A stretch of DNA of 64,000 nt from an uncultured Bacteroidota bacterium (lineage in GTDB: Bacteria > Bacteroidota > Bacteroidia > Flavobacteriales > Flavobacteriaceae), in assembly GCA_902620455.1 (NCBI GenBank), contig CACNIG010000001.1:124001-188000 (forward strand), written 5' to 3'. A program made the position numbers and the translations under genes. Shown here piece by piece: positions 2,343 through 3,685 of this stretch; the first letter of the stretch is position 1, and each line of letters begins with the position of its first letter. A model generated the notes under the pieces. That model was not told the origin of the DNA. It made no database searches and saw only the letters and a list, made by a program, of their open reading frames with translations.

Positions 2343-2431
2343 GCATTAAAATTTTTGTAAAACTAGAAAATTGAGTTTTTTAGGTTTCTTTTTGATATGG
2401 TTTTAATTATTATTTAACATCTTTAAAATAA

Positions 2432-2547
2432 TGTAAAGCAAACTATACATTTATAATGTAAAGTTTATTTTACAAAAAAAATTTAAAAGTTATAATGTAA
2501 AGTTTATTTTACAAAAATTTTATTATATTTGTAAAGCTTACTTTACA
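2432..2547. promoter_or_regulatory. Four palindromic operators TGTAAA-N6-TTTACA
   Basis: Four 18-bp inverted repeats lie just before the XRE gene: 2432-2449 (right arm TATACA, one mismatch), 2457-2474 and 2496-2513 (identical TGTAAAGTTTATTTTACA) and 2530-2547 (TGTAAAGCTTACTTTACA, a perfect palindrome). Starts are 25, 39 and 34 bp apart. The last copy overlaps the -7 box and ends one base before the ATG. Each has two 6-bp arms, the size expected for an HTH dimer. Autorepression by the adjacent regulator is the simplest reading. Confidence 0.8.
2524..2531 (+). promoter_or_regulatory. TATATTTG -7 box of the XRE gene
   Basis: Matches the Bacteroidota -7 consensus TAnnTTTG, 17 nt before the ATG at 2549. 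The fourth operator begins inside the box, so regulator binding there would block RNA polymerase. Confidence 0.55.
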
Positions 2548-2743: not shown

Positions 2744-3685
2744 ATGGAAAAAATTGATGCAGTAATAACTTGGGTTGATGGATCTGACCCTAATTACAAA
2801 ATAAAACTTGAAGAGAATCTTAAAAACAAAAAGATCATCAACAGACAATACACTCAGGCAAATGAAATTGATTTCTGTGTAGCATCTATTATTAAATTTG
2901 CCCCATTTGTTCGAAAAATATTTATTGTTACTGATAAACAAAAACCAAAATTTAGTGGGATTAGACATATGGTGTCTTTAGAAAAAATTGAAATTATTGA
3001 TCATGAAGAAATTTTTCGTGACAATTTAGATTGTATGCCATCATTTAATATTAGATCAATAGATGCATTACTTTTTAAGATTAAAAATCTTTCTGATAAG
3101 TTCATTTATTTTAATGATGATATGTTTCTTATCAAAGAGACTACCAAAGAAGATTGGTTTAAATATAATAAAGCAGTTTTAACAGGAAGTTGGGCCAAAA
3201 CATACAATAAACAATTAATAAAGACCATCTCACATAAAATAAAAAACTTATTAAATATTAGGCCAAGCTTCAACGCTGCTCAATCAAAAGCTGCAAATAT
3301 TGTGGGTTTCCATAATAGGTATTTTAAATCATTTCATTGTGGTAGACCACAAATAAAATCAGTTATTAAAGATTTTTATGATAAAAACCCTCAAAGACTA
3401 ACAAACCAAATAAGGTACAAATTTAGAGACGGCAGACAATATATGCCATACAGCCTTTGTTGGCATCTGTTAATAAAAGAGAATCTCTATGTTGAGTCTT
3501 CCACAAATAAACTTGTAGAGATAAATAAATCCCGAAATCTTTCAGCCAAAAAACTAGAAAAGATATTAAAAAGTATTGATTCAAAAGCTGAAGTTAAATT
3601 TCTGAATATACAAGACCTAAATATGGCAGAACCTGAAACACAACAAGTTTTTCAAAACTGGTTTATAAAAAAATTAAATAGCTGA
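2744..3685 (+). CDS. Stealth-family sugar-phosphate transferase
   Basis: A 313-aa Stealth protein. The conserved regions are in order: CR1 DAVITWVDGSDP (residues 4-15); CR2 including IRSIDALLF and DKFIYFNDDMFL (about 103-130); and later blocks around FHCGRP and MPYSLCWHLL. Stealth enzymes transfer sugar 1-phosphates onto polysaccharide chains (for example capsule synthesis) and are related to GlcNAc-1-phosphotransferase. No membrane helix is seen. It abuts the XRE gene with no gap. It converges on a class V aminotransferase gene whose stop is 1 nt away. No capsule locus surrounds it, so the acceptor is unknown. Confidence 0.82.
   Translation: MEKIDAVITWVDGSDPNYKIKLEENLKNKKIINRQYTQANEIDFCVASIIKFAPFVRKIFIVTDKQKPKFSGIRHMVSLEKIEIIDHEEIFRDNLDCMPSFNIRSIDALLFKIKNLSDKFIYFNDDMFLIKETTKEDWFKYNKAVLTGSWAKTYNKQLIKTISHKIKNLLNIRPSFNAAQSKAANIVGFHNRYFKSFHCGRPQIKSVIKDFYDKNPQRLTNQIRYKFRDGRQYMPYSLCWHLLIKENLYVESSTNKLVEINKSRNLSAKKLEKILKSIDSKAEVKFLNIQDLNMAEPETQQVFQNWFIKKLNS

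What the first reader, a model, noticed from the sequence alone, without database searches (positions are those of the whole stretch)
2432..2547. Four-operator array overlapping the XRE promoter
Four copies of TGTAAA-N6-TTTACA in 116 bp, two with identical centres, end one base before the ATG of a 64-aa XRE protein; the last covers the -7 region. This is a strong prediction of autorepression and possibly graded control of the abutting Stealth gene and the divergent yceI operon.
Basis: seen in the sequence. Interest (0 to 1): 0.6.

Follow-up and report, generated by a model that had tools for sequence, protein, structure and literature searches.

The report
Self-controlling repressor switch for Stealth gene
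A very small bacterial DNA-binding protein probably switches off its own gene, and the surface-sugar enzyme gene directly behind it, by sitting on four matching DNA sites at their shared start; the sites are kept in its relatives, while in more distant relatives the same kind of site guards a different partner gene.

Summary
The array is real: three exact TGTAAA-N6-TTTACA copies (2457, 2496, 2530) and one with a single mismatch (2432), the last ending one base before the ATG of a 64-aa CylR2-like XRE protein. It precedes the XRE in 20 of 20 same-genus genomes that hold it (four sites in 18, five in one, three in one), in fixed register, with sites better conserved than spacers. A TAnnTTTG promoter box runs into site 4 in 19 of 20. 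The motif (13 bits or more) also lies upstream of 42 of 51 other XRE homologs with the same type of recognition helix (0.2 expected), against 1 of 15 RK-helix and 0 of 7 other homologs; there it mostly precedes a small membrane-protein gene paired with the XRE. So the XRE is the likely binder and autorepression is well supported, not shown. In this genus the cassette drives an abutting Stealth gene; 25 Stealth loci outside the genus lack it. Control of divergent yceI is not supported. Known kind of switch, new wiring, moderate interest.

The parts
2432..2449 (.). Operator 1, TGTAAAGCAAACTATACA (one mismatch; on average the weakest of the four across the genus)
2457..2474 (.). Operator 2, TGTAAAGTTTATTTTACA (exact)
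   Evidence: partly decayed in G013 and one change in G023
2496..2513 (.). Operator 3, TGTAAAGTTTATTTTACA (exact, identical to operator 2); about -40 to -23 from the predicted start site
2524..2531 (+). Promoter -7 box TATATTTG (flavobacterial sigma-A consensus TAnnTTTG); start site predicted near 2536, 5' UTR about 13 nt
   Evidence: TAnnTTTG at this position in 19 of 20 orthologous loci (TATATTTG, TATCTTTG or TATGTTTG); consensus and its position -12 to -5 from passages of PMC9723704
2530..2547 (.). Operator 4, TGTAAAGCTTACTTTACA (exact); overlaps the -7 box, the start site and the 5' UTR; highest mean score
2549..2743 (+). XRE / HTH_3 regulator, 64 aa, CylR2-like, recognition helix VSRQTIISIE
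2744..3685 (+). Stealth-family gene (Stealth_CR1 and CR2), 313 aa; its ATG abuts the XRE stop codon

Best explanation
The 64-aa XRE protein binds, as a dimer, the palindrome TGTAAAG-N4-CTTTACA. Sites 3 and 4 lie either side of and across the -7 box and start site of the promoter of the XRE-Stealth operon, so bound protein blocks RNA polymerase: negative autoregulation of the regulator and, in the same transcript, of the Stealth gene. Sites 1 and 2 upstream are accessory (extra occupancy, cooperativity or buffering). The pair (sites 3-4, 33-35 bp apart, -7 box embedded) resembles the operator of small-XRE + membrane-protein modules in near relatives; in this genus an XRE with that operator is linked instead to a Stealth gene, and two more sites stand upstream. 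Shown by sequence: array, spacing, conservation, promoter box, gene abutment, helix-motif association. Inferred: binding, repression, single transcript, direction of the rewiring. The inducing signal is unknown; no membrane partner that might sense it is adjacent.
For: Array present before 20 of 20 XRE orthologs, spacing 25 / 37-39 / 33-35 in the 18 four-site loci, operator identity to the window 0.89 vs 0.63 in spacers. It follows the XRE, not yceI: kept in G021 (methyltransferase next to it, no yceI match) and in G011 and G024 (an HxlR-type gene between). XRE and Stealth are both missing from the same 5 of 25 genus genomes, and no clustered sites were seen there. Independent homologs (all 73 non-orthologous hits): a site of 13 bits or more upstream in 42 of 51 with RQ[TSA] helix (0.18 expected from shuffles), 1 of 15 RK, 0 of 7 others. 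A two-site pattern search of 397 family genomes hit 5; the 3 outside the genus all lie upstream of a membrane-protein + XRE pair. The two closest such pairs (G028, G076) and the second copies in G011 and G018 have two sites 34-36 bp apart with the same TATATTTG/TGTAAA overlap. The best PDB sequence match is the repressor CylR2 (6.4e-12).
Against: No binding, footprint or expression data. 9 of 51 RQ homologs show no site of 13 bits or more (3 of these have short upstream DNA: 175, 470 and 788 bases). G008 keeps XRE and array after losing Stealth, so Stealth is not needed for their retention, or the loss is recent. The five genomes lacking the unit are 54-82% complete and also lack close matches to yceI and the neighbouring aminotransferase, so they inform little on the XRE-array link. 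Activation from sites 1-2 is not excluded. The scoring matrix came from the genus arrays (81 sites, one of them probably a chance hit) and the 13-bit line was chosen after seeing scores. Orthologous genomes are related, so 20 of 20 is not 20 independent events.
Confidence: 0.83

Rival explanations
1. Activator-repressor switch like the controller (C) proteins of restriction-modification systems: upstream sites activate the promoter at low protein, promoter sites repress at high protein.
For: C.AhdI (rank 1) and C.BclI (rank 4) are among the best fold matches; sites lie both upstream and across the promoter.
Against: Site 3 covers about -40 to -23 and site 4 overlaps the -7 box, so the sites nearest polymerase should block it; the closest sister modules show only the two promoter sites; the best sequence match is the repressor CylR2. 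Most of this is inference.
Confidence: 0.12
2. The array is bound by a different regulator and the XRE is a bystander.
For: No direct binding data.
Against: The motif follows the XRE recognition-helix class across genera and gene contexts (42/51 vs 1/15 vs 0/7), and a related but different element stands before the VSRKSI paralogs (TGTAACG-N4-CTTCTCA / TGATAAG-N4-CGTTACA).
Confidence: 0.04
3. The array also controls the divergent yceI - FMN reductase operon.
For: Shared intergenic region in most relatives; a sigma-70-like minus-strand hit overlaps site 1 (2437-2409).
Against: Site 1 is about 67 bp upstream of the only TAnnTTT[GA] box on that strand (2365-2358); array kept without adjacent yceI in G021 and with a gene between in G011/G024; the promoter scan found 5 hits against 4.9 in shuffles.
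Confidence: 0.08

Closest known systems
CylR2 (Enterococcus faecalis cytolysin repressor; PDB 1utx)
   Same: 66-aa XRE, E 6.4e-12 over residues 1-62, VSRQTI in the aligned helix, fold TM 0.79; binds a promoter as a repressor, and its partner CylR1 is a predicted membrane protein (review PMC3709268, passages read)
   Different: CylR2 represses a divergent operon and works with a membrane partner; here no membrane partner is adjacent and the presumed target is a co-directional Stealth gene. The CylR2 operator sequence could not be read here.
Small XRE + membrane-protein pairs (partners annotated DUF2178, DUF3278, DUF6773 or hypothetical in the plasmid records opened)
   Same: Same operator motif, often two or three sites in register; found widely in the same family and order and, in a sample of ten plasmid records, in other phyla
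   Different: Operator sits before the membrane gene (relatives here) or before an XRE followed by the membrane gene (Priestia, Streptomyces records); no Stealth gene
Controller proteins C.AhdI / C.BclI
   Same: Size and fold; multi-site control of their own promoter (recalled)
   Different: No restriction-modification gene among the neighbours identified
Stealth capsule phosphotransferases (CpsY from the listing; SacB, XcbA recalled)
   Same: CR1 and CR2 domains
   Different: Short (313 aa), CR3/CR4 not detected, no capsule gene among the neighbours identified, preceded by an XRE

Membership tests
XRE / HTH_3 (Cro/C1-type) regulators | HTH_3 domain above curated cut-off | tested here: met
   52.2 bits, cut-off 23
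CylR2-like small XRE | Stand-alone domain of about 66 aa with full-length similarity to CylR2 | tested here: met
   phmmer E 6.4e-12 over 1-62; Foldseek rank 2, TM 0.79, from a medium-confidence model (pLDDT 77)
CylR2-like small XRE | C-terminal beta strands at the dimer (recalled feature of CylR2) | tested here: inconclusive
   Model shows four helices and no strands; last residues have pLDDT about 51
CylR1/CylR2-type two-protein system | Adjacent membrane partner protein | tested here: not met
   In the 20 loci the XRE lies between yceI, an HxlR-type gene or a methyltransferase and Stealth (the remnant in G008), with no membrane-partner gene
CylR1/CylR2-type two-protein system | Same operator as CylR2 | not tested
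   Primary paper not held; toxin locus not fetched
Stealth proteins | Stealth_CR1 and CR2 | tested here: met
   CR2 98.5 bits (cut-off 39.4), CR1 34.3 bits (cut-off 27.2)
Stealth proteins | CR3 and CR4 | tested here: not met
   Not listed even at E up to 5 (HMMER's filters may drop weak matches)
Autorepressed operon | Regulator occupies its own promoter and lowers its expression | not testable with these tools
   Architecture consistent

The most novel reading that the evidence does not exclude
A readable recognition code: small XRE proteins with a [VI]SRQ[TS]I helix bind TGTAAAG-N4-CTTTACA across several phyla, those with VSRKSI bind TGTAACG/TGATAAG variants, and this portable XRE-operator cassette was separated from its membrane partner and re-used, with an enlarged operator array, as a self-limiting dose controller of a surface-glycan (Stealth) gene in a small-genome Bacteroidota lineage.
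Probability: 0.5. Interest if true: 0.55.

Novelty: new variant of a known kind. Interest (0 to 1): 0.42.

Why it matters
It gives a specific, testable operator for a common class of tiny regulators (the XRE partner of small membrane proteins), with what looks like a natural specificity change in a paralog of the same genome, and it shows that class rewired to a surface-polysaccharide enzyme in a 1.24-Mb genome with only three HTH_3 matches. It also ties a Stealth gene to a dedicated switch, which suggests that its product is needed only at times.

Tried and rejected
Other genomic targets: only sites within one mismatch of TGTAAAG-N5-TTTACA were sought in the own genome. The best non-array ones, C7:47428 (20.9 bits) and C5:92996 (17.7), lie in a convergent intergenic region and inside trpB; C12:4757 scores 9.0, and C1:85643, C7:43088 and C1:165761 (window 41761) score below 8. 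So no sign of a wider regulon at that stringency. A sigma-70 style promoter TTTACA-N16-TATAAT at 2469-2496 (11 of 12) was rejected: 5 such hits against 4.9 in shuffles, and the TATAAT is not kept in many relatives. Viral contigs: 52 stretches with a two-site pattern; six were opened. L117 and L121 have intergenic arrays with other centres beside unrelated genes, L130 lies inside a gene, L119 precedes a 125-aa membrane protein at a contig end; no ORF of 45 aa or more with an S[RK]Q[TSA]I-type helix was found in any of the 52 stretches, so another regulator is likely there. XRE next to Stealth outside the genus: 0 of 25 loci, 3 of which are below the curated Stealth cut-off; my first regular-expression scan for XRE was faulty (it missed the window's own XRE) and was replaced by alignment scoring. 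A helix regular expression also missed some loci; one search used alignment instead. Literature, all listings unless stated: DUF2178 + XRE 0 papers; the DUF2975 search showed no paper with that word among the 12 listed; 'Stealth protein' + XRE + operon 2 plasmid papers; Stealth protein + capsular polysaccharide + phosphotransferase 9; TGTAAAG + CTTTACA + operator + repressor 13, none evidently about this operator; CylR2 searches. PMC3709268, PMC8960796 and PMC9723704: passages only. A 2025 survey of XRE palindromes (PMC12565409; outline, passages and part 1 of 2 of Results read) may hold this motif among its 223 clusters; its motifs are in figures and supplements that I could not see, so novelty of the motif itself is not claimed. 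CylR2 structure paper (PMC517608) not held.

Full report
Observation. Three exact copies of TGTAAA-N6-TTTACA (2457, 2496, 2530) and one with a single mismatch (2432) lie in 116 bp; two share the centre; the last ends one base before the ATG at 2549. Three copies of one palindrome are far beyond chance: mean 0.03 exact copies per shuffled window, and none of 5000 shuffles of the intergenic region exceeded one. Three 6-N6-6 palindromes of any sequence there are less striking (146 of 5000 shuffles), and at two mismatches the window as a whole is unremarkable. In the 1.24-Mb genome the exact TGTAAAG-N5-TTTACA sites are these three only, and in the window only the four sites reach 9 bits with the matrix.

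Organism. It is not named. That it is a marine flavobacterium is my inference.

Genes. 2549-2743 encodes a 64-aa HTH_3 protein whose best solved relative is CylR2 (E 6.4e-12, residues 1-62); an AlphaFold model (pLDDT 77, five-sequence alignment A1) finds C.AhdI and CylR2 as top folds. 2744-3685 is a Stealth-family gene (CR1 and CR2 above cut-off; CR3/CR4 not seen), starting immediately after the XRE stop codon. yceI is divergent at 1731-2342.

Conservation. All 25 genomes of the genus held were searched. 20 have the XRE ortholog, 5 (G001, G002, G003, G007, G017; 54-82% complete) do not; G007's only hit is a paralog. 19 of 25 have Stealth: the same set minus G008, where Stealth is cut down to a short 5' remnant while XRE and four sites remain. 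The five genomes without the unit also lack a close match to yceI and to the neighbouring aminotransferase (30-31% paralogs only), so they may lack the whole region. All 20 XRE orthologs are preceded by the array: four sites in 18, five in G012, three in G021, counted at 9 bits or more with a matrix made from these arrays; by plain mismatch counting (up to 2) the picture is the same, apart from one extra chance-like hit in G010 that also entered the matrix. In the 18 four-site loci spacing is 25, 37-39 and 33-35 bp. Operator columns agree with the window in 89%, spacers in 63% (18 sequences; the window and near-identical G022 left out). Mean site score rises towards the promoter: 22.4, 23.3, 23.8, 25.2 bits for sites 1-4.

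Promoter. TAnnTTTG stands at -25 from the ATG in 19 of 20 loci (TATATTTG, TATCTTTG or TATGTTTG). This is the sigma-A -7 box of flavobacteria, at -12 to -5 (PMC9723704, passages), which puts the start site near 2536. Site 4 then covers about -6 to +12 and site 3 about -40 to -23. Repression by exclusion of polymerase follows from this layout; it is inferred, not measured. G021 lacks site 4 and has TATCTTTA instead of the box.

The array belongs to the XRE. In G021 the array follows a methyltransferase gene and no yceI match was found. In G011 and G024 the yceI gene starts about 580-600 bp upstream of the XRE, and an HxlR-type gene (Pfam HxlR 91.2 bits for the G024 copy; its G011 relative found by alignment) lies between. 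So yceI is not a required target. For yceI in the window the only TAnnTTT[GA] box on its strand is TAGTTTTA at 2365-2358, about 67 bp from site 1.

Independent homologs. All 73 other XRE hits were read with up to 1 kb upstream (less at contig ends; loci). Sorted by recognition helix: RQ[TSA] 42 of 51 have a site of 13 bits or more (expected 0.18 from 200 shuffles each), RK 1 of 15 (expected 0.04; that one, in G007, is of the RK type below), other 0 of 7. The 13-bit line was set after seeing scores. Downstream, in up to 1 kb (about 300 bp in the loci), one locus of 73 showed a site of at least 9 bits (L219). In 47 of the 51 RQ loci an ORF with a predicted hydrophobic helix ends next to the XRE start (simple hydropathy, my count), and the sites lie before or at the start of it, mostly 400-600 bp from the XRE, and about 900-970 bp in five loci. 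Of 47 RQ loci with a site of at least 9 bits, 40% have a second, usually weaker site 21 bp to the right and 22% one 21 bp to the left; others lie at 20, 34-36 or 40-42; 13 of 47 have TAnnTTTG running straight into a site as here. The two closest relatives (G028, G076) and the second copies in G011 and G018 have two sites 34-36 bp apart with that overlap; the second copy in G024 has only 788 bp upstream and shows none; the next closest (G142, G088) have 20- or 40-bp spacing. Hence sites 3-4 look like an inherited core and sites 1-2 an addition; this order of events is inferred. An exact two-site pattern over 397 family genomes (evenly drawn) hit 5: two of this genus and three others, all three before membrane-protein + XRE pairs.

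Specificity change. The 15 RK paralogs (VSRKSI; one is in this genome, C16) have a related but different element, TGTAACG-N4-CTTCTCA or TGATAAG-N4-CGTTACA and the like; in 10 of 15 two copies 27-30 bp apart passed the limit, in 5 of 15 one. 13 of 15 have a hydrophobic ORF before the XRE. At that loose limit (3 of 14 mismatches) the element ties with the TGTAAAG motif in 13 of 15 and fits TGTAACG better in 2, so the distinction rests on the sequences shown and on the score gap, not on that count.

Other phyla. Of 565 plasmid records with a homolog (40 listed) I opened 10: sites of 10 bits or more near the XRE or its partner in 3 of 4 with [VI]SRQT helices (Bernardetia, Priestia megaterium, Streptomyces; the fourth, Nicoliella, has TGTAATATATAAATTACA at 6.1 bits) and 0 of 6 others (best 9.2 and 8.9; the helix of one was not resolved). 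In the Priestia record a second XRE is divergent. Small sample, hand-picked by organism.

Stealth elsewhere. PF11380 matched 24 of 249 family genomes, 21 above the cut-off. Of 27 Stealth loci read with about 1.5 kb flanks, the two of this genus have the XRE and sites; the other 25 (3 below the cut-off) have neither. The XRE-Stealth wiring thus appears restricted to this genus among those sampled.

Verdict. Autorepression of an XRE-Stealth operon through a four-site array is the best reading (0.83). The kind of switch is ordinary; the target, the absent membrane partner and the enlarged array are the variant. The inducing signal is unknown.

Noticed in passing
G000:C16:5958-6140 (locus L074): Paralogous XRE (VSRKSI helix) behind a small hydrophobic ORF, with its own two-copy element of a different sequence (TGTAACG.../TGATAAG..., 28 bp apart), similar in the other 14 RK loci.
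   Followed up: partly
window 2400-2421: GTTTTAATTATTATTTAACATC, an imperfect palindrome that recurs upstream of yceI in many loci where yceI is directly divergent (sequences, by eye); candidate site for a different regulator of yceI.
   Followed up: no
L059 (genome G008): Stealth gene reduced to a short 5' remnant beside an intact XRE and four-site array; the methyltransferase upstream is also in two pieces there.
   Followed up: partly
L117, L121 (viral contigs): Phage-like contigs with two to three TGTAAAG-N4-CTTTACA-like sites about 28 bp apart in an intergenic region, without an SRQTI-type XRE in the fetched stretch; regulator unknown.
   Followed up: partly
L119 8217-8663: Two perfect TGTAAAGTTTACTTTACA sites before a 125-aa membrane protein that runs to the contig end, possibly another membrane-protein + XRE module; host not determined.
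   Followed up: partly
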